Below are positions 1 to 12,739 of a DNA stretch of 21,409 bases, piece by piece (positions within the stretch are counted from its first letter, which is position 1; every line of letters starts with the position of its first letter). The notes beneath the pieces were generated by a model. It did no database searches. It was not told where the DNA came from and worked only from the letters and a program-made list of their open reading frames with translations. Made by a program: the position numbers and the translations under genes. Source of the DNA: a virus; IMG/VR virus record IMGVR_UViG_3300027963_000386, positions 1 through 21,409 of that record. One strand, given 5' to 3'.

Positions 1-14
1 AAATATTTAGATAA
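1..14 (+). CDS. 3' end of an upstream LRR-family paralogue (partial)
   Basis: In frame 3 the first bases read Ile-Phe-Arg-stop (ATA TTT AGA TAA, 3-14). This is the ending of the paralogue that stops at 2577. The stop overlaps the next ATG by one base, exactly as at 1523, 2170 and 2577. The LRR array therefore almost certainly continues upstream of the window. Only about four codons are visible, so the call rests on the junction match. Confidence 0.55.
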
Positions 15-553
15 TGGAAAAAGAAGCAATAAAAAATATATTTGATTTCCTTGAAAAGAAAGAAAATAAAAAACATAAAGATAGAGATACCTTTATTTGG
101 AAATTAAAACTTGGTGATCCCCTAACAAAAGAAGATTTAATTGTTGATGGTGATTTGGATTTAACAGATTCAACTTTAAAATCATTACCAGATAATTTGC
201 AAGTTAAAGGTAGAATGATTACTAGATTTTCAAAAATAGAAGAATTGCCAAAAGGGTTAAAAGTTGATGGTTCTTTGGAGTTATCGCATTCAATTATAAA
301 AAACATACCAAATGATATTAAAATTGGCGCTTCTTTGTATTTACATAATACAAAAATAACTTCATTGCCAGAAGGGTTAGTAATTGACCTTTGGTTATCA
401 ATAATGGATACGCCAATAAAAAGATTACCAAAAGGCTTGGAAGTTAATGGATATTTAGCCATAAGTGTTGAAGATAGTTTAGACAAATTTTCAAATGCTG
501 AATTAAGAGAAATGGTTAAACCTGGGCGTATAGGTAGAATAATTAGGATATAA
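14..553 (+). CDS. LRR-family paralogue 1 (179 aa)
   Basis: This is a small protein of the window's LRR family. It has an N-terminal cap (MEKEAIKNIFDFLEKKE..., then W-K-L-K-x-G-D-P-L-T) and five LPxGL-type repeats of about 20 residues (SLPDNL, ELPKGL, NIPNDI, SLPEGL, RLPKGL). Each repeat is followed by a V-x-G-x-L-x-L strand. The C-terminal cap is FSNAELREMVKPG. No signal peptide or membrane segment is visible, so it is probably intracellular or virion-associated. LRRs of the SLPxxL type generally form curved solenoids that bind proteins; the partner here is unknown. The start is set by the stop/start overlap with the preceding paralogue. The cap ends RIGRIIRI, slightly unlike the GFIxGxIxR of its sisters. 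Confidence 0.85.
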   Translation: MEKEAIKNIFDFLEKKENKKHKDRDTFIWKLKLGDPLTKEDLIVDGDLDLTDSTLKSLPDNLQVKGRMITRFSKIEELPKGLKVDGSLELSHSIIKNIPNDIKIGASLYLHNTKITSLPEGLVIDLWLSIMDTPIKRLPKGLEVNGYLAISVEDSLDKFSNAELREMVKPGRIGRIIRI

Positions 554-692
554 CCACATACAATTTAATCACAACAGCAGATTTTAATAAAGATGACATA
601 GTAATAGGCTAAAACAAAAAGTCCATTAAAATCAAAATATGAGAGCCATAAACAAAATAAAGAATAATGATATTTATAATAAAAAATAAGAT
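554..692 (+). other. Intergenic spacer with a promoter-like box
   Basis: This stretch of 139 bases has no credible gene. A 20-codon open stretch ending in D-D-I-V-I-G-stop near 612 has no start and is not supported. The only patterned element is the TATTTATA box at 671-678, listed separately. Confidence 0.5.
671..678 (+). promoter_or_regulatory. TATTTATA box before the 693 gene
   Basis: TATTTATA lies 14 nt upstream of the ATG at 693 and is followed by an A-rich leader. It is the only plus-strand member of a set of seven identically oriented boxes in this window, all 11-20 nt before start codons. The promoter role is inferred. Confidence 0.45.
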
Positions 693-1115
693 ATGATACA
701 TCCAGTAATTAAAAAAATTGTTAAGAATGCAATAAATGAGCAAGCAACAGAAAATTATATGTTTTTTGGAAACTTAAAACAAATTAAAAGACAATGTGAA
801 TTATTGCTTGAATTTCAACCTGATGAAATTAATGAATTGTTGAACAATGGGCATGATTGGGCTGATGACCATGTGACAGTTGCAAAAGAAAACTTGGATC
901 AAGTTTTTGATTTTATGATGAATGAATTTGAAAACAGGGATAACCAGAACATAACAGAAGCAAAAGAAAAAAAGAATAAACCAACAAATCCCAAGTTATG
1001 GAGTCAATGTTTGAGTTGGGCAAGGTCAAGGTATAAGGTATGTCCAAGCGCATATTGTAATGGTGCTGCGGCAAAAAGGTATAAGAAATTGGGTGGTAAA
1101 TGGAAGAAAGGATAG
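693..1115 (+). CDS. Conserved-type phage protein of unknown function (140 aa)
   Basis: There are two parts. The N-terminal half (about 1-80) is helical and carries an H-D-W-A-D-D-H motif at residues 54-60 inside a Glu/Asn-rich helix pair. The C-terminal part (about 98-140) is a basic Trp/Cys motif block, P-K-L-W-S-Q-C-L-S-W-A followed by Y-K-V-C-P-S-A-Y-C-N-G and K-K-L-G-G-K-W. Small proteins with this W/C pattern occur in T4-like phages as uncharacterised proteins; I know no assigned role. Three Cys (106, 117, 122) could bind metal, but this is speculative. It interrupts the LRR array and has its own TATTTATA box. Its stop at 1113-1115 is followed after 3 nt by the next LRR start. Confidence 0.8.
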   Translation: MIHPVIKKIVKNAINEQATENYMFFGNLKQIKRQCELLLEFQPDEINELLNNGHDWADDHVTVAKENLDQVFDFMMNEFENRDNQNITEAKEKKNKPTNPKLWSQCLSWARSRYKVCPSAYCNGAAAKRYKKLGGKWKKG

Positions 1116-1118
1116 ATA

Positions 1119-1523
1119 ATGGAAAAAGAAACAATAAAGAATATATTATCTTTTATTGAAAAGGTAGATGGTTCAAAAATGTCAATTGTTTGGAAAATAA
1201 AAAATGGTTTACGATTAACAGAAGATGAATTAAATATTGATGATGATTTGCATTTAGAGTTTTCAAAAATAACTTTATTGCCAGAAGGGTTGAAAGTTGG
1301 GGGTGATTTGTTGTTACTTGGAACACCAATAACCTCTTTACCAGAGGGTTTAATTGTTGGGGGGGATTTGTTCTTAGACTATTCAAAAATAACTTCACTA
1401 CCAAAAGGATTAAAAGTTTGGGGTGGTTTGTATATTAAAAACGCACCATTAAAAAAATACACAGATGAACAATTAAGAGAAATGGTTAAACCTGGATTTA
1501 TACAAGGAAAAATAAATAGATAA
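1119..1523 (+). CDS. LRR-family paralogue 2 (134 aa)
   Basis: This is one of the shortest members, with only three LPxGL repeats (LLPEGL, SLPEGL, SLPKGL) between the standard caps. The N-cap is MEKETIKNILSFIEKVDG... W-K-I-K-N-G. The C-cap is APLKKYTDEQLREMVKPGF. The repeats follow the pattern SLPxGLxVxGdLxLxxTxI with a period near 20 residues. No export signal is visible. The sequence around the start (GATAATGGAAAAAG) is the same as at the other LRR junctions, although here the upstream gene is not an LRR gene. The stop overlaps the next start by one base, which implies translational coupling. Confidence 0.85.
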   Translation: MEKETIKNILSFIEKVDGSKMSIVWKIKNGLRLTEDELNIDDDLHLEFSKITLLPEGLKVGGDLLLLGTPITSLPEGLIVGGDLFLDYSKITSLPKGLKVWGGLYIKNAPLKKYTDEQLREMVKPGFIQGKINR

Positions 1524-2170
1524 TGGAAAAAGAAACATTAAAGAAGATATTTAATTTCCTTGAAAAGAAGGATAATAGGAATACACCACTTATGTGGAAA
1601 TGGTCAAGTGGTTATCCATTAACAGAAGATGATTTACATATTAAAGGTGATTGTAATTTATCAGATTCAAAGGTAGAAACATTACCAGATAATTTACATG
1701 TTGAAGGTGATTTGTTTTTACAAAATTCAGATATTAAATCATTGCCAGAAGGATTGGAAGTTGGGGGGCATTTAGTTTTAAATTATACAGAAATAAGAAA
1801 ATTACCAAAAAGATTAAAAGTTAAATTAGATTTGGATTTATCATATACACAAATACAATCATTACCAGAAGGATTGAAAATTGAAGGTGAATTAAATTTA
1901 AATACCACCCCATATTTGGAATCATTACCAGAAGGAATGGAAGTTGGTATATTATCTTTGGAGGATTCAATGATAGAATTTTTACCAAAAGGATTAAAAG
2001 TTAATAGAATGTTAAATTTAATGCATTGCAAAAATTTAACTTCATTACCAAAAGGGTTGGAGGTTTATGGTAATTTGGCCATTGACAAGTCTGGGTTAGA
2101 AAAATTTTCAGATGAAGAATTAAGAAAAATGGTTAAACCAGGATTTATACTTGGAAATATAGAAAGATAA
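1523..2170 (+). CDS. LRR-family paralogue 3 (215 aa)
   Basis: This is the longest plus-strand member, with seven LPxGL-type repeats (TLPDNL, SLPEGL, KLPKRL, SLPEGL, SLPEGM, FLPKGL, SLPKGL) between conserved caps. The N-cap is MEKETLKKIFNFLEKKD and the C-cap is KFSDEELRKMVKPGFI. One repeat carries an extra residue (T-P-Y-L-E-S-L-P), as is common in LRR solenoids. The start and stop each overlap the neighbouring paralogue by one base. The difference in repeat number from its neighbours is the main visible variation. Function is unknown, and protein binding is inferred from the fold class. Confidence 0.86.
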   Translation: MEKETLKKIFNFLEKKDNRNTPLMWKWSSGYPLTEDDLHIKGDCNLSDSKVETLPDNLHVEGDLFLQNSDIKSLPEGLEVGGHLVLNYTEIRKLPKRLKVKLDLDLSYTQIQSLPEGLKIEGELNLNTTPYLESLPEGMEVGILSLEDSMIEFLPKGLKVNRMLNLMHCKNLTSLPKGLEVYGNLAIDKSGLEKFSDEELRKMVKPGFILGNIER

Positions 2171-2577
2171 TGGAAAAAGGAACGCTAAAGAATATATTAT
2201 ATTTTCTTGAAAAGGTAGATGGTGCAAAAATTCCATTTTTATGGAAAATAACAAATGGATCACCATTAACAAAAGAAGAATTAAATGTTAAGGGTGATTT
2301 GGATTTGGAATTTTCAAAAATAACATCATTGCCAGAAGGATTAGAAGTTGAGGGGGATTTGAATTTGCTTGAATCAGAAATAACCTCCTTGCCAGAAGGT
2401 TTAAGAGTTGGGGGGGATTTGGATTTAAATTGGTGTATTAACATATCATCATTACCAAAAGGATTGGAAGTTGGACGAAATTTGTTTATTAGCCCAACAC
2501 CATTACGCAAATACACAGATGAGGAATTACGAGAAATGATTAAACCTGGATTTATAAAAGGAACAATATTTAGATAA
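2170..2577 (+). CDS. LRR-family paralogue 4 (135 aa)
   Basis: This three-repeat member (SLPEGL, SLPEGL, SLPKGL) has the N-cap MEKGTLKNILYFLEKVDGAK and the C-cap TPLRKYTDEELREMIKPGFI, ending T-I-F-R. Its N-cap coding sequence (2206-2276) is identical over 71 bases to the same part of the next paralogue, which suggests recent duplication or gene conversion. It is coupled to both neighbours by one-base stop/start overlaps. Confidence 0.85.
   Translation: MEKGTLKNILYFLEKVDGAKIPFLWKITNGSPLTKEELNVKGDLDLEFSKITSLPEGLEVEGDLNLLESEITSLPEGLRVGGDLDLNWCINISSLPKGLEVGRNLFISPTPLRKYTDEELREMIKPGFIKGTIFR
2206..2276 (+). repeat. 71-base exact repeat, copy 1 (LRR N-cap)
   Basis: It runs from cttgaaaaggtagat to aacaaaaga. 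It matches 2613-2683 base for base, including synonymous positions, inside two adjacent paralogues. Confidence 0.9.
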
Positions 2578-3143
2578 TGGAAAAAGAAACATTAAATAAT
2601 ATACTATCTTTCCTTGAAAAGGTAGATGGTGCAAAAATTCCATTTTTATGGAAAATAACAAATGGATCACCATTAACAAAAGATGAATTAAATGTTGATG
2701 ATGATTTGGATTTATCAAATTTTAAAATAACTTCATTACCAGAAGGATTAAAAGTTAGTGGCAATTTGAATTTAGACTATTCAAAAATAACTTCACTACC
2801 AGAAGACTTGGAAGTTGAGGGCGATTTATCTTTTCAGCATTCAAATATAAAATCATTACCAGAACGATTGAAAGTTGGGGGTGATTTGGATTTATATGGT
2901 TGCGAAAAACTTGAATCACTACCAGAAGGATTAAAAGTTAATGGCACATTATATTTAAATCATTGTTACAAATTACAATCATTACCAAAAGGATTGAAAG
3001 TTGATGATGGGATAAACATAACTTACACAAAATTAACCAAATACACTGAAAATCAATTAAAAAAAATGGTTAAACCTGGATATATTAAAGGTATTATATT
3101 AAATGAGGATCCTGATTGGGATGAAACAGAATTTGCTATTTAA
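2577..3143 (+). CDS. LRR-family paralogue 5 (188 aa)
   Basis: This is the last plus-strand member, with five repeats (SLPEGL, SLPEDL, SLPERL, SLPEGL, SLPKGL). Two of them have the one-residue-longer form that places Cys at the turn (Y-G-C-E-K-L, N-H-C-Y-K-L). The C-cap is KYTENQLKKMVKPGY. Unlike its sisters, the protein continues with an acidic tail (N-E-D-P-D-W-D-E-T-E-F-A-I). The N-cap is nearly identical to that of paralogue 4 at DNA level. No LRR gene follows; a promoter for the next gene overlaps its 3' end. Confidence 0.86.
   Translation: MEKETLNNILSFLEKVDGAKIPFLWKITNGSPLTKDELNVDDDLDLSNFKITSLPEGLKVSGNLNLDYSKITSLPEDLEVEGDLSFQHSNIKSLPERLKVGGDLDLYGCEKLESLPEGLKVNGTLYLNHCYKLQSLPKGLKVDDGINITYTKLTKYTENQLKKMVKPGYIKGIILNEDPDWDETEFAI
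2613..2683 (+). repeat. 71-base exact repeat, copy 2 (LRR N-cap)
   Basis: This is the exact second copy of 2206-2276, lying in the N-terminal cap of the following paralogue. Confidence 0.9.
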
Positions 3144-3995: not shown

Positions 3996-4865
3996 TTAAT
4001 AATTTGTAATAACCAAATGCTTGACATTATTATCATATCTATTTTTAATATTTGTTGAATATTTTAAATCATATTCTGAAACAATATAATCCTTATACAA
4101 ATCATAGGTGAAATCATCTTTATTTATTATAATCATAACTTTTGCAAATTTTATATTTTTAAATATATCAAAAAGTTTGAACTGGCTATCTTTGTCAAAA
4201 CTATTATTATGTGAATATTCCTTAAACTCTCTGGTATATGGTGGATCAATAAAAATGAATGTATTTTCTGTATCATTATTCATCATAATATTTTCATATG
4301 AATCACAAAAAATTTGTGTTTTAGCCAATTTTTCAATATGTTCATCCTGCAAATTTATATTAAATGCTTTGTAATTACCATATGGGATATTAAATTCGCC
4401 ATGACTATTAAATCTACGCATACCATTAAAAGATAGTTGATTGACTAAATAAAACCTAAATGCCCTATCAATACTGCTCAAACTTGTCAATCCATTTTTT
4501 CTATCTTTGTTTCTCCATTCATAGTATATTAAACCCCTTAACTTCTTTGCTTCAGAAATACTTATTGTTTTATTTTTCTCCTCATTTGAAATAACACTAA
4601 TTTCATTTGAAATTGTTTTAACCATAGAGATTATCTCATTAGAATTACTTTTCAATACATTCAAAAAATTAATAAGATCATAATCAATATCATTTATGAT
4701 ATTGTCATTAGAATTTAAACTCCAATATACGGCACCACCACCAAAGAAGGGCTCAACAAACTTATAATCTTTTTTTTCTTTCACAAAATCTGGATAAAAC
4801 TCTTCAAAAAGTTTAATCTCCTTTCTCTTTCCCCCAGTCCATTTGTAAATAGGAATTAATGACAT
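3996..4865 (-). CDS. dam: DNA adenine (N6) methyltransferase, Dam/D12 class (289 aa)
   Basis: The protein would transfer a methyl group from SAM to adenine N6 in DNA. K-W-T-G-G-K at residues 8-13 and V-E-P-F-F-G-G-G-A at 37-45 are the SAM-binding motifs. N-D-I-D at 58-61 is the acidic loop. D-P-P-Y at 207-210 is the catalytic motif IV, preceded by F-I-F-I. The motif order and length match phage T4 Dam and bacterial Dam, whose target is GATC; the specificity here is not proven by sequence. It stands alone, without a cognate nuclease next to it, as is usual for phage Dam enzymes used for protection or regulation. It has its own promoter at 4881-4911. Confidence 0.9.
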   Translation of the reverse strand: MSLIPIYKWTGGKRKEIKLFEEFYPDFVKEKKDYKFVEPFFGGGAVYWSLNSNDNIINDIDYDLINFLNVLKSNSNEIISMVKTISNEISVISNEEKNKTISISEAKKLRGLIYYEWRNKDRKNGLTSLSSIDRAFRFYLVNQLSFNGMRRFNSHGEFNIPYGNYKAFNINLQDEHIEKLAKTQIFCDSYENIMMNNDTENTFIFIDPPYTREFKEYSHNNSFDKDSQFKLFDIFKNIKFAKVMIIINKDDFTYDLYKDYIVSEYDLKYSTNIKNRYDNNVKHLVITNY

Positions 4866-4923: not shown

Positions 4924-4976
4924 AAAATATAAAGATAGATACGCTTATTTTTTATACTTTTTTTTTAAAAAATACT

Positions 4977-5005
4977 TTGGAATTAAAAATAATTTTGTAT
5001 CTTTG
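4977..5005 (+). promoter_or_regulatory. Bacteroidetes-type promoter of the small RNA locus
   Basis: TTG (4977-4979, as TTTGG) and TATCTTTG (4998-5005) are separated by 18 bases, a full match to TTG / TAnnTTTG. No open reading frame of note follows. The downstream region instead holds three hairpins and a terminator. Confidence 0.7.
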
Positions 5006-5063
5006 TGTTGTTATCAAAGGAAAACAATTTATGTGCAAGTAATCATAATTCCTTAGATGTGGG

Positions 5064-5083
5064 AGAGAACGATTTAGATACAA
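5064..5083 (+). repeat. Loop motif copy 1
   Basis: AGAGAACGATTTAGATACAA is flanked by GGG (5061-5063) and CCC (5084-5086). This is the weakest stem of the three. Confidence 0.9.
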
Positions 5084-5126
5084 CCCCTCTATATTTTGCA
5101 ATTATAATCTATTTTGTGCATATAAG

Positions 5127-5165
5127 CATTAGTGAAGAGATACGATTTAGATACAATCATTAATG
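5127..5165 (+). repeat. Hairpin 2 with loop motif copy 2
   Basis: CATTAGTGA (5127-5135) pairs with TCATTAATG (5157-5165) with one G-U. The 21-nt loop is exactly the motif with one inserted base (AGAGATACGATTT...). Confidence 0.85.
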
Positions 5166-5179
5166 ATTCCTTTGGATAG

Positions 5180-5228
5180 AGAGGGGGGGGAGAGAACGAT
5201 TTAGATACAACCCCCTCTTTTATTTTTC
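5180..5228 (+). terminator. Hairpin 3 with loop motif copy 3; intrinsic terminator
   Basis: AGAGGGGGGGG pairs with CCCCCTCT around the 20-nt motif (5191-5210), with alternative registers in the G run. A T-rich tail (TTTTATTTTT) follows on the plus strand only, so it terminates plus-strand transcription. Confidence 0.7.
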
Positions 5229-5639
5229 TAAAACTAATTGGTCAGGACCAACCCTTAATCTATTTTTTGAACTTTCTCTAAAAACAGTAACTACAACTAA
5301 TTTCCAGTATGATTCATACCCATATTCAGACTTAGGACTAATTACACAAGCAAGTTCTTTTTCAATAGATTTTATAATAAATGGCACATTATGTTCAATT
5401 TTATTATATGCTATATTCTCTGCAATATCTCTTTTAAACAAATTAATAAAATAAAGTAATTCATTATTACTAATTATTTTTTCATTATAATCTTCAATGT
5501 TATCTCTTGTTTTTTGATCATATGAATGGGTTGTAGTAATAACATCAAAATTAAATATAACCTCAATTTTTGATAAAATCTGGCCAATTTTTTTCTCTAA
5601 AAGTAAAGTTTCACTTAATAGATTTATTAAATTTTTCAT
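5220..5639 (-). CDS. Hypothetical phage protein (139 aa)
   Basis: I do not recognise this family with confidence. It has an N-terminal helix (M-K-N-L-I-N-L-L-S-E-T-L-L-L-E-K-K), then T-T-H-S-Y-D-Q-K-T-R (residues about 36-45), I-S-N-N-E-L, and a C-terminal strand pair (W-K-L-V-V-V-T-V-F-R-E-S). A His...Arg element, an I-S/T-x-x-E helix and a V-V-T-V-F strand in this order resemble small phage proteins sometimes compared with RelE/BrnT-like folds; this is only a loose pattern. A TATTTATA box lies 11 nt upstream of the ATG. It converges with the small RNA locus at its 3' end. Confidence 0.7.
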   Translation of the reverse strand: MKNLINLLSETLLLEKKIGQILSKIEVIFNFDVITTTHSYDQKTRDNIEDYNEKIISNNELLYFINLFKRDIAENIAYNKIEHNVPFIIKSIEKELACVISPKSEYGYESYWKLVVVTVFRESSKNRLRVGPDQLVLEK

Positions 5640-11041: not shown

Positions 11042-11632
11042 CTAATTTCTAATTATTGGATCATTTATAAATCCAGGCTTAACCATTCTTCTTAATTCAT
11101 CATCTGAATATTTTTCTAATGGTGTTCCAGCAATTTCCAAACCACCTTTAACTATCAAACCTTTTGGTAATGTTTCTATTTTTGTAAAGGTTAAACCTAA
11201 CTCTCCCCCAATTTTAACTCCTTTTGGTAATGATTTTATTTGGCTATTAAATAAGTTTAAATCCCCATCAACAACCAATCCTTCACCAATGGAAACTATT
11301 TTTTTTGCATATAATTGTATGTTTTTGCCAACATATAATCCTTTTGGTAATGAGTTTATTGCTTCACAAAAAATTATGTTTAAATCACCTCCAACTTGCA
11401 AATCATCTGGTAATGAGGCTATTTTTGAAGCAGTTAACATCAAATCACCCTCAACTTTTAAACCCTTTGGTAAGGAGGTTATTGGTGAATGTTCTAAATG
11501 TAAATCACCTTTAAAAGTCAAATCTTCTTCAGTCAATGGCATATCATTTTTCAATTTCCAAAATAATGGTATATTTTGTTTACCGTTTTCTTTAATAAAT
11601 TCAAATATTCTTTTTAATGTTTCTTTTTCCAT
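11042..11632 (-). CDS. LRR-family paralogue 8, head cluster (196 aa)
   Basis: This is the last of the three minus-strand LRR genes, with six LPxGL-like repeats (SLPKGL, SLPDDL, SLPKGL, SIGEGL, SLPKGV, TLPKGL). SIGEGL is a degenerate unit lacking the Pro. The caps are the family type: MEKETLKRIFEFIKENG...PLFWKLKND and TPLEKYSDDELRRMVKPGFI. It begins one base after the stop of paralogue 7. With the same caps as the distant plus-strand array, it shows that the family expanded at two separate places in the genome. Confidence 0.85.
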   Translation of the reverse strand: MEKETLKRIFEFIKENGKQNIPLFWKLKNDMPLTEEDLTFKGDLHLEHSPITSLPKGLKVEGDLMLTASKIASLPDDLQVGGDLNIIFCEAINSLPKGLYVGKNIQLYAKKIVSIGEGLVVDGDLNLFNSQIKSLPKGVKIGGELGLTFTKIETLPKGLIVKGGLEIAGTPLEKYSDDELRRMVKPGFINDPIIRN

Positions 11633-11633
11633 T

Positions 11634-12035
11634 TTAATATATGTTACCTATATAGCCATCTGGTTTTACCATGTTTAATATTTTCTCATCTGACATTCTT
11701 CCTAATGGTGTGCCACCAAGCCATATATTACCCCGAACTTTTAAATCTTTTGGTAGTGATTTTAAATTTTCACAATCTTGTAACTGCAAATCACCACCAA
11801 CTCTTAAACCTTTTGGTAATTTTTTTATTGGTGTGGCATTTAACAATAAATTACGTTTAACATATAACCCTGCTGGCAATTGTTCTATGTCTTCCCCTTG
11901 TAAATCCAAATCACCTTTGACATATAATTGTTCTTTAGTAAAGGGGATTTTATTCATCATTTTCCATTTTATGGAGAACTTTTTTTCACTTCCTTCAAGG
12001 AAATTAAATATGTTTTTTAATGTGTTTGCTTCCAT
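11634..12035 (-). CDS. LRR-family paralogue 7, head cluster (133 aa)
   Basis: This is a short, more divergent member with three repeats (QLPAGL, KLPKGL, SLPKDL). The N-cap is MEANTLKNIFNFLEGSEKKF...KWKMMNKIPFTKEQL. The C-cap has changed to RMSDEKILNMVKPDGYIGNIY, with an inserted Asp in the usual KPGF. Its start lies inside the upstream paralogue (19-nt overlap), so translation is probably coupled. Confidence 0.83.
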   Translation of the reverse strand: MEANTLKNIFNFLEGSEKKFSIKWKMMNKIPFTKEQLYVKGDLDLQGEDIEQLPAGLYVKRNLLLNATPIKKLPKGLRVGGDLQLQDCENLKSLPKDLKVRGNIWLGGTPLGRMSDEKILNMVKPDGYIGNIY

Positions 12036-12739
12036 TTTCTACCTATTTGACCTTTTATAAAACCAGGTTTAACCATTTTTCTCAAATCATCATCTGAAAG
12101 TTTTGCTAATGGTGTTCCAGCAATTTCCAAACGACCCCCAACTTCCAATCCTTCTGGTAATGATTTTATCTTATTATTTATTAAAACTAAATCCCCACCA
12201 ACTTTTAATCCTTTTGGTAGTGAGGTTATGTTTGTATATGATAAATTCAAGACACTACTTATTGTTAAACTTGAATTAAGTATTAATTTGTTGATAGTTA
12301 CAATCCCTTCAGTTATTACACCTTTTGGTATTTCATCTATATTAAATATATGACTATTTATTGCATAGATAACTCCACCAACTTCCAATCCTTTTGGTAG
12401 TATTCCTATACTTGTATAAGATATAACCAGAGAACCACCAACTTTTAATCTTTTTGGTAATTTACTTACACTTGTATCAGAAATACTTAGCCAGCCACCA
12501 ACTTCTAATCCTTCTGGTAATGATCTTAGCCTTGAACTAGCTAAATTCAAATTACCCCCAACTTTTAGCCCTTTTGGTAATGAGGTTATATTTGAAAGAC
12601 CTAACCCCAAATCACCTCTTACATTCAAATCATCTTCTGTAAATGGCTCCTTAATTGCAATTTTGTAAGCAAAAGGCATTCTTATATTTTCTTTTTTCTC
12701 AATAAAATCAAATATTCTTTTTAATGTTTCTTTTTCCAT
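12017..12739 (-). CDS. LRR-family paralogue 6, head cluster (240 aa)
   Basis: This is the longest LRR protein in the window, with seven LPxGL-like repeats (SLPKGL, SLPEGL, KLPKRL, ILPKGL, EIPKGV, SLPKGL, SLPEGL). An irregular middle section (about residues 125-165, N-S-H-I-F-N-I-D-E-I-P-K-G-V) may be a decayed or inserted unit. The caps are MEKETLKRIFDFIEKKE...PFAYKIAI and TPLAKLSDDDLRKMVKPGFI, with an extra basic tail (R-K-W-K-Q-T-H). Its ATG follows the prohead protease stop by one base, so it should be made in the same late transcript. No signal peptide is visible. A virion or prohead role is possible but unproven. Confidence 0.85.
   Translation of the reverse strand: MEKETLKRIFDFIEKKENIRMPFAYKIAIKEPFTEDDLNVRGDLGLGLSNITSLPKGLKVGGNLNLASSRLRSLPEGLEVGGWLSISDTSVSKLPKRLKVGGSLVISYTSIGILPKGLEVGGVIYAINSHIFNIDEIPKGVITEGIVTINKLILNSSLTISSVLNLSYTNITSLPKGLKVGGDLVLINNKIKSLPEGLEVGGRLEIAGTPLAKLSDDDLRKMVKPGFIKGQIGRKWKQTH

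What the first reader, a model, noticed from the sequence alone, without database searches (positions are those of the whole stretch)
4977..5228. Apparent new small RNA: three hairpins presenting one constant 20-nt loop
A consensus promoter, no ORF, and a terminator enclose three copies of AGAGAACGATTTAGATACAA (one with an extra base). Each copy sits exactly in the loop of a hairpin whose stems differ (GGG/CCC; CATTAGTGA/TCATTAATG; AGAGGGGG/CCCCCTCT). Stem change with kept pairing around a constant loop is covariation-like evidence for RNA structure. A triply displayed loop suggests a sponge or decoy for a protein or RNA, comparable in logic to multi-hairpin decoy RNAs. I cannot match it to a known family. 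Alternative: DNA iterons of an origin or regulator site.
Basis: partly seen in the sequence, partly recalled or inferred. Interest (0 to 1): 0.85.

Follow-up and report, generated by a model that had tools for sequence, protein, structure and literature searches.

The report
Phage small RNAs displaying one loop
Viruses of Bacteroidota bacteria carry a previously unlisted family of small RNAs, built of one to four hairpins that all show the same loop sequence; the loop is so well preserved across very different viruses that it probably grips one particular partner molecule during infection, but that partner is still unknown.

Summary
Window 4976-5229 holds a Bacteroidota-type promoter, three hairpins with the loop AGAGA(U)ACGAUUUAGAUACAA, and a terminator formed by the third hairpin. 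The same hairpin, variable stem plus near-constant loop RGGNA-ACGAUUHAGAUACAA, occurs in about 80 IMG/VR contigs, one of 385 kb, and in a 634-kb phage. Stems covary strongly (all 9 pairs changed on both sides; covariation 0.86 against 0.28 shuffled and at most 0.34 slid), so it is RNA and not a DNA iteron. Eighty loci fetched by a neighbouring protein, not by the motif, give the same answer (68 carry it). The first hairpin starts at the transcription start (loop core 17 or 20 nt after TAnnTTTG in 32 of 41 promoter-linked places). Contexts: two- to four-hairpin sRNAs beside the capsid gene; single hairpins heading tRNA arrays or GOLLD RNA loci; hairpins between tRNAs. It matches no Rfam family, and 296 Flavobacteriales genomes show no excess over control. 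Best reading: a trans-acting display hairpin that binds one conserved partner, probably an RNA-binding protein, as decoy or competitor. The RNA family is near certain; the decoy function is inferred and the partner unknown. Antitermination, RNA antitoxin, CRISPR-repeat mimic and antisense are weaker rivals.

The parts
4976..5005 (+). Bacteroidota-type promoter: -33 TTTG (4976-4979), -7 TATCTTTG (4998-5005); start of transcription expected near 5010-5012
   Evidence: sequence; the same TAnnTTTG box lies directly before the first hairpin in most relatives
5010..5229 (+). predicted sRNA of about 210-220 nt with three display hairpins
   Evidence: promoter and terminator enclose it; nearly identical in L001
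5012..5022 (+). 5' strand of long-range closing stem TATCAAAGGAA
   Evidence: fold; pairs with 5167-5178, one bulged G; identical in L001 so not tested by covariation
5061..5087 (+). display hairpin 1: stem GGG/CCC(C), loop 5064-5083 AGAGAACGATTTAGATACAA (weak stem)
5127..5165 (+). display hairpin 2: stem CATTAGTGA/TCATTAATG, loop 5136-5156 AGAGATACGATTTAGATACAA (one extra U)
   Evidence: in L001 the stem is CATTAATGA/TCATTAATG (G-U to A-U)
5167..5178 (+). 3' strand of long-range closing stem TTCCTTTGGATA
   Evidence: fold
5180..5218 (+). display hairpin 3, also the terminator stem: AGAGGGGG../CCCCCTCT, loop 5191-5210 AGAGAACGATTTAGATACAA
5218..5229 (+). U-tract of the intrinsic terminator (TTTTATTTTTCT)
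   Evidence: sequence
5220..5639 (-). 139-aa convergent neighbour gene (called FAM0 here); usual neighbour of the multi-hairpin class but not found in most searched records with single hairpins
   Evidence: no Pfam match

Best explanation
This is a phage-encoded small RNA of a new family. Its working unit is a hairpin with a freely changing stem and a constant loop, RGGNA-ACGAUUHAGAUACAA. The unit is made in one to four copies, either as a stand-alone RNA whose last hairpin is its own terminator (window type), as a promoter-proximal hairpin in front of tRNA arrays or GOLLD RNA loci, or as a spacer inside tRNA arrays. Shown here: the RNA structure, the loop conservation, the promoter-proximal position, the absence of an excess in host genomes, and the variety of contexts. 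Inferred: the loop binds one conserved partner in trans, most likely an RNA-binding protein of the host or phage, and multi-copy display titrates or occupies it during infection (decoy or competitor). Confidence that it is a real structured phage RNA family is about 0.95. Confidence in the decoy mechanism is what is scored below.
For: Covariation: all 9 stem pairs show changes on both sides, score 0.859 vs 0.280 +/- 0.032 shuffled (0/500) and at most 0.34 for slid partners. In loci chosen by the neighbouring protein, 68 of 80 carry the motif on the expected strand and 0 on the other, and 52 of 57 distinct hairpins beat shuffled flanks at p<=0.05 while the loop stays nearly invariant. The first loop core lies 17 or 20 nt after the -7 box in 32 of 41 promoter-linked places, against 3.4% chance of such a box within 45 nt. 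Multi-copy display: 2-4 hairpins in L009, L010, L022, L005 and others. Context independence, which argues for a trans role: tRNA-array spacers without a promoter (L040, L090, L094); three separate places in one 634-kb phage; phages with both the sRNA and a hairpin before GOLLD; a phage lacking it at the capsid locus but carrying it before GOLLD. No second-site complement within 1 mismatch in 26 phage records, which favours a protein partner over antisense.
Against: No partner was identified. A host decoy would usually copy a host ligand, yet the core is not enriched over its reversed control in 296 Flavobacteriales genomes and model hits there look like chance, mostly in coding-like sequence. 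Several single hairpins are followed by A-runs rather than U-runs and lie just upstream of a second promoter, so they need not be released RNAs. In L154 the hairpin is the 5' hairpin of the GOLLD transcript itself, which would also suit a cis tag. No expression data.
Confidence: 0.42

Rival explanations
1. Cis-acting nascent-RNA element: the hairpin emerges first from RNA polymerase and, like HK022 putRNA or nut sites, modifies the polymerase or recruits a factor so that long untranslated RNAs (tRNA arrays, GOLLD) are completed, or it protects their 5' end.
For: Fixed spacing from the -7 box; frequent position before tRNA arrays and GOLLD; in L154 it forms the GOLLD 5' hairpin. HK022 put is known to act as a nascent RNA element (PMC9378689).
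Against: In the multi-hairpin class the RNA ends within about 110-220 nt at a terminator made of the same hairpin; hairpins between tRNAs have no promoter box just upstream; many single hairpins have a second promoter between them and the ncRNA; the TTCTTTGA box after GOLLD-type hairpins is absent in the other classes (0 of 38) and in four host rRNA leaders.
Confidence: 0.2
2. The loop is bound by a phage-encoded protein and serves phage-internal regulation, RNP assembly or packaging (like an operator or packaging hairpin).
For: The motif is practically confined to phages and shows no host excess while being near invariant among them; several hairpins can occur in one genome.
Against: No gene near it is shared by all contexts: the 139-aa neighbour was not found in most single-hairpin records searched, including the 385-kb one.
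Confidence: 0.17
3. RNA antitoxin or inhibitor of the convergent 139-aa protein, which may be an injected nuclease (its N-terminus resembles a T4-type capsid-targeting signal; its model weakly resembles RelE/HigB/YoeB toxins).
For: 68 of 80 loci of the protein have the RNA convergent beside it; weak structural similarity to RelE-like toxins and YeeU, Z 2.4-4.8.
Against: 19 of 24 searched records, nearly all motif carriers and many of them fragments, show no such gene; the structural match is far below significance (Foldseek best E 0.3); the RNA is not upstream on the same strand as in type III systems.
Confidence: 0.09
4. Antisense RNA whose exposed loop pairs with a conserved host or phage transcript.
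For: A 15-20 nt exposed conserved loop is the classic shape of a seed; U/C/A variation at one position is tolerated.
Against: No complementary site (<=1 mismatch) in 26 phage records beyond rare single hits and no excess in 296 host genomes; no significant complement in 16S or 23S rRNA.
Confidence: 0.08
5. DNA iterons of an origin or regulator site.
For: Repeated 15-20-mers lie in an intergenic region.
Against: Stem pairing is kept through many two-sided changes, always on the transcribed strand, mostly just after a promoter, never on the other strand.
Confidence: 0.02

Closest known systems
CsrB/RsmZ-type multi-hairpin decoy RNAs
   Same: Several hairpins present the same loop sequence; stand-alone small RNA with its own promoter and terminator
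   Different: Loop is 15-20 conserved nt; the third base of the GG-N part is any base, so it is not the CsrA GGA signal; phage genes; partner unknown
HK022 putRNA (nascent antitermination RNA)
   Same: Phage RNA hairpin element placed directly after promoters
   Different: Single large-loop hairpin, also found between tRNAs and as the terminator of its own RNA; other sequence
GOLLD RNA (RF02032) and phage tRNA islands
   Same: Shares the same phages and gene islands; many single hairpins lie a few hundred nt before GOLLD
   Different: The hairpin is a separate element, not in the Rfam GOLLD model, and also occurs without GOLLD nearby
RNA anti-CRISPRs (Racr, solitary CRISPR-repeat mimics)
   Same: Short phage RNA with a repeated unit under its own promoter
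   Different: No CRISPR array with this unit among 84,980 species genomes; the loop is conserved, not the stem
Type III toxin-antitoxin RNA (ToxI-like repeats)
   Same: Repeated RNA units with a terminator next to a small protein gene
   Different: Neighbour gene is convergent, not a recognised ToxN, and not found in many motif carriers
FopS sRNA family of Bacteroides (bound by RbpB)
   Same: Small RNAs from the same sigma-type promoters; related sequence reported in a phage (PMC11697453)
   Different: FopS has a single-stranded seed and a plain terminator hairpin; only a short U/A-rich stretch (UUAGAU) is alike

Membership tests
Rfam families (4227 models, release 15) | match at or above the gathering score | tested here: not met
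   no match for the window; permissive search gives only chance matches far below cut-off
CsrB/RsmZ decoy RNA | several hairpins with the same exposed loop | tested here: met
   2-4 hairpins per RNA
CsrB/RsmZ decoy RNA | GGA in the loop for CsrA | tested here: not met
   base after GG is A, C, G or T among hairpins
CsrB/RsmZ decoy RNA | titrates a protein | not testable with these tools
   needs pull-down
HK022 putRNA | promoter-proximal hairpin element in the nascent RNA | tested here: met
   17 or 20 nt from -7 box to core in 32 of 41 promoter-linked places
HK022 putRNA | RNA continues past terminators into a long transcription unit | tested here: not met
   by sequence, in the multi-hairpin class the RNA ends at a terminator made of the same hairpin; the single-hairpin class is open
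Racr (CRISPR repeat mimic) | unit matches a CRISPR repeat of a host | tested here: not met
   19-mer pattern over 84,980 species genomes gives 15 scattered hits and no array
Type III toxin-antitoxin | same-strand downstream toxin gene of the ToxN/TenpN/CptN kind | tested here: not met
   downstream gene is convergent and has no Pfam match to such a toxin
GOLLD RNA | match to RF02032 | tested here: not met
   GOLLD matches lie hundreds of nt downstream of the hairpins
DNA iteron or operator | repeat kept without pairing of its flanks | tested here: not met
   flanks covary as stems

The most novel reading that the evidence does not exclude
A phage-wide address or decoy hairpin: one 15-nt loop, held nearly constant across small and megaphages of Bacteroidota, is shown in several copies on stand-alone sRNAs, in tRNA arrays and at GOLLD nanocage RNA loci, and captures one conserved host factor (for example of the translation, transcription or defence machinery) by RNA alone. 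Where it forms the GOLLD 5' end, the 14-mer cage would show fourteen copies.
Probability: 0.2. Interest if true: 0.9.

Novelty: new variant of a known kind. Interest (0 to 1): 0.72.

Why it matters
It adds an unlisted, strongly supported RNA family to Bacteroidota phages, ties it to tRNA and GOLLD RNA islands whose function is an open question, and gives a short loop that can be used directly as bait to find the partner. If the partner is a host defence or gene-expression protein, this would be a new way for phages to act through RNA alone.

Tried and rejected
Alignment A2 contained one sequence that I mistyped; it was discarded and replaced by A3. A3 keeps three 21-nt-loop hairpins that are off register by one column, which lowers the pairing score slightly. 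Similarity of the loop to the 16S rRNA helix-24 (790) loop, GAUUAGAUAC against GAUUHAGAUAC: p 0.04 for the window loop but 0.17-0.39 for four other loops against shuffles, so only a weak lead. Host mimicry by sequence: no enrichment in 296 Flavobacteriales genomes; 43-nt model hits there are chance matches, mostly in coding-like sequence. A start-codon-like hit in ribosomal protein L30 genes of two Bacteroidales (L121, L122) was judged chance. BoxA-type antitermination: TTCTTTGA follows 9 of 12 GOLLD-group hairpins but 0 of 38 others, and none was found in four rRNA leaders. The 139-aa neighbour: no Pfam match for the window protein, weak scattered matches otherwise, no significant PDB sequence match, Foldseek best E 0.3, VIA-align best Z 4.8 to YeeU-like and RelE-like proteins, inconclusive. 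Named phages: no meaningful hit with the sRNA region; hits only in uncultured megaphages, of which the 634-kb one carries the hairpin and the 642-kb one does not; the cultured relative Flavobacterium phage immuto has no match. Literature: the loop sequence occurs in no held paper; none of the papers listed by the searches describes such an RNA by title or abstract.

Full report
WHAT IS THERE. The window is a 21,409-base IMG/VR virus record with T4-type portal, terminase and major capsid genes. Its capsid protein is 42% identical to that of Flavobacterium phage immuto over part of its length. Between a DNA adenine methyltransferase gene (3996-4865, -) and a 139-aa gene (5220-5639, -) lies a + strand region with a Bacteroidota-type promoter (TTTG 4976-4979, TATCTTTG 4998-5005), three copies of AGAGA(T)ACGATTTAGATACAA, each in a hairpin loop, and a U-tract after the third. 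Hairpins 2 and 3 fold far better than shuffles; hairpin 1 has only a GGG/CCC stem and is weak alone. A long-range stem TATCAAAGGAA/TTCCTTTGGATA encloses hairpins 1 and 2. The closest relative, L001, keeps all of this.

NOT CHANCE AND NOT LOCAL. Exact scans of viral contigs with parts of the loop found the motif in about 80 contigs after removing some 20 single chance hits that look coding or lack a fitting hairpin. The consensus hairpin is a stem of roughly 5-12 bp of any sequence, then RGGNA (variable), then ACGAUUHAGAUACAA (H = U, C or A), then the other stem strand. Seventy-one distinct stem/loop combinations were collected. In 26 whole records the core occurs almost only at these places and the reversed control almost nowhere. 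Over 84,980 bacterial and archaeal species genomes a 19-mer pattern gave 15 hits, close to chance; at least one (L118, a Flavobacteriaceae MAG contig) has two hairpins of this kind and may be phage. In 296 Flavobacteriales genomes the core is not enriched over control, and apart from L118's own contig the covariance-model hits inspected are chance-level matches, mostly in coding-like sequence.

IT IS RNA. On 32 hairpins the nine stem pairs form standard pairs in 83% of cells against 53% when partners are shuffled; the covariation score is 0.859 against 0.280 +/- 0.032 (0 of 500) and 0.15-0.34 when the partner strand is slid. That set was chosen by loop and partly by pairing, so an independent set was drawn: 80 loci fetched by the 139-aa neighbour protein. 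Of these, 68 carry the motif on the expected strand, none on the other, and 52 of 57 distinct hairpins pair better than shuffled flanks at p<=0.05, with the core near invariant. In the two-hairpin class RNAalifold, given only the alignment, finds the terminator hairpin and a third small hairpin between the two, with two-sided changes in 12 of 14 pairs.

WHERE IT SITS. In 41 places with an upstream TAnnTTTG box, the loop core begins 17 nt (18 places) or 20 nt (14 places) after the box; such a box occurs by chance in 3.4% of 45-nt windows. The first hairpin therefore starts at or near the transcription start. Three contexts exist. (a) Stand-alone RNAs with 2-4 display hairpins whose last hairpin is the terminator, convergent to the 139-aa gene near the capsid gene (window type). 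(b) Single hairpins before tRNA arrays (L035, L043 of a 385-kb record, L061, L068, L076) or a few hundred nt before GOLLD RNA (L038, L058, L074, L082, L099, L155, L315), often with a second promoter between; in L154 the hairpin is the 5' hairpin of the GOLLD transcript itself. (c) Hairpins between tRNAs without their own promoter (L040, L090, L094). A 634-kb phage (LR745206.1) has three, before a tRNA array, before tRNA-Met plus GOLLD, and before a gene. Records G008, G010, G013 and G021 have both the capsid-locus sRNA and a further hairpin about 23 kb away; the two of these read (L155 of G021, L157 of G013) show the same promoter-hairpin sequence, and L155 carries GOLLD. G333 lacks it at the capsid locus but has it before GOLLD. 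The neighbour gene of context (a) was not found in 19 of 24 searched records, nearly all motif carriers, several of them fragments.

HOW IT MOST LIKELY WORKS. The loop is the conserved part, the stem only a holder, and the unit is moved between expression contexts and multiplied within one RNA. This is the pattern of a binding site displayed in trans. A protein partner is favoured over antisense because no conserved complementary site within one mismatch is found in the carrying phages, no excess in hosts, and no significant complement in rRNA. I therefore commit to a decoy or competitor RNA for one conserved RNA-binding partner (0.42). The step from loop conservation to a single partner, and the decoy effect, are inferences. 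The main rival is a put-like nascent-RNA element or 5'-end tag for long untranslated RNAs (0.20), which fits contexts before tRNA arrays and GOLLD but not the short self-terminated sRNAs or the tRNA-spacer hairpins. Next are binding by a phage-encoded protein (0.17), an RNA antitoxin for the 139-aa protein (0.09) and antisense (0.08).

COMPARISON. No Rfam family matches. It works like CsrB-type multi-hairpin decoys in layout but is not one by its loop (CsrB is from my own knowledge). It resembles HK022 putRNA in position (PMC9378689), but the self-terminated class fails that definition. It is not a CRISPR-repeat mimic (compare PMC10651486; tested), not a type III antitoxin, and not part of the GOLLD model. 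GOLLD itself forms a 14-mer RNA cage of unknown function, encoded in phages often near tRNA islands (PMC12286853); if the L154-type hairpin is part of it, a cage would show fourteen loops, which is speculation.

VERDICT. This is a new phage RNA family with a clear, cheap next experiment (loop pull-down).

Noticed in passing
L154:1700-2300 (G015 106500-110500), - strand: A second unknown ncRNA of about 170 nt carries the same 5' display hairpin just upstream of the GOLLD transcript, which itself starts with such a hairpin.
   Followed up: partly
L005, L008, L036-L042, L046, L048, L063, L072, L079, L083 (alignment A4): The two-hairpin sRNAs hold a third, small covarying hairpin between the display hairpins, with a loop around CGAAA.
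   Followed up: partly
window 5220-5639 (-) and 80 relatives: The 139-aa neighbour begins with LLLEK, like a T4-type capsid-targeting/prohead-protease site, and its model weakly resembles RelE/HigB/YoeB toxins and YeeU; it may be an injected head protein.
   Followed up: partly
L304 about 1900-2200: A relative of the neighbour gene has a different, unrelated promoter-to-terminator RNA in the same place.
   Followed up: no
L038, L039, L058, L062, L074, L082, L099, L155: GOLLD-group transcripts share TTCTTTGA after a small 5' hairpin such as TCGGAAACGTCCGA; it looks like a boxA but was not found in four Flavobacteriales rRNA leaders.
   Followed up: partly
L074, L082, L099, L155: Phage tmRNA genes lie within about 2 kb of GOLLD on the opposite strand.
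   Followed up: no
window 14-3143 and 11042-12739: Many paralogous ORFs built of repeats such as LTSLPEGLKVGGDL surround the structural genes.
   Followed up: no
L118:341-419: A Flavo-1 RNA (RF01705) lies on the same Flavobacteriaceae MAG contig as two display hairpins.
   Followed up: no
L121, L122: The start of a probable ribosomal protein L30 gene in two Bacteroidales reads ATGGCAACGATTAAGATACAA, matching the loop core; judged chance.
   Followed up: partly
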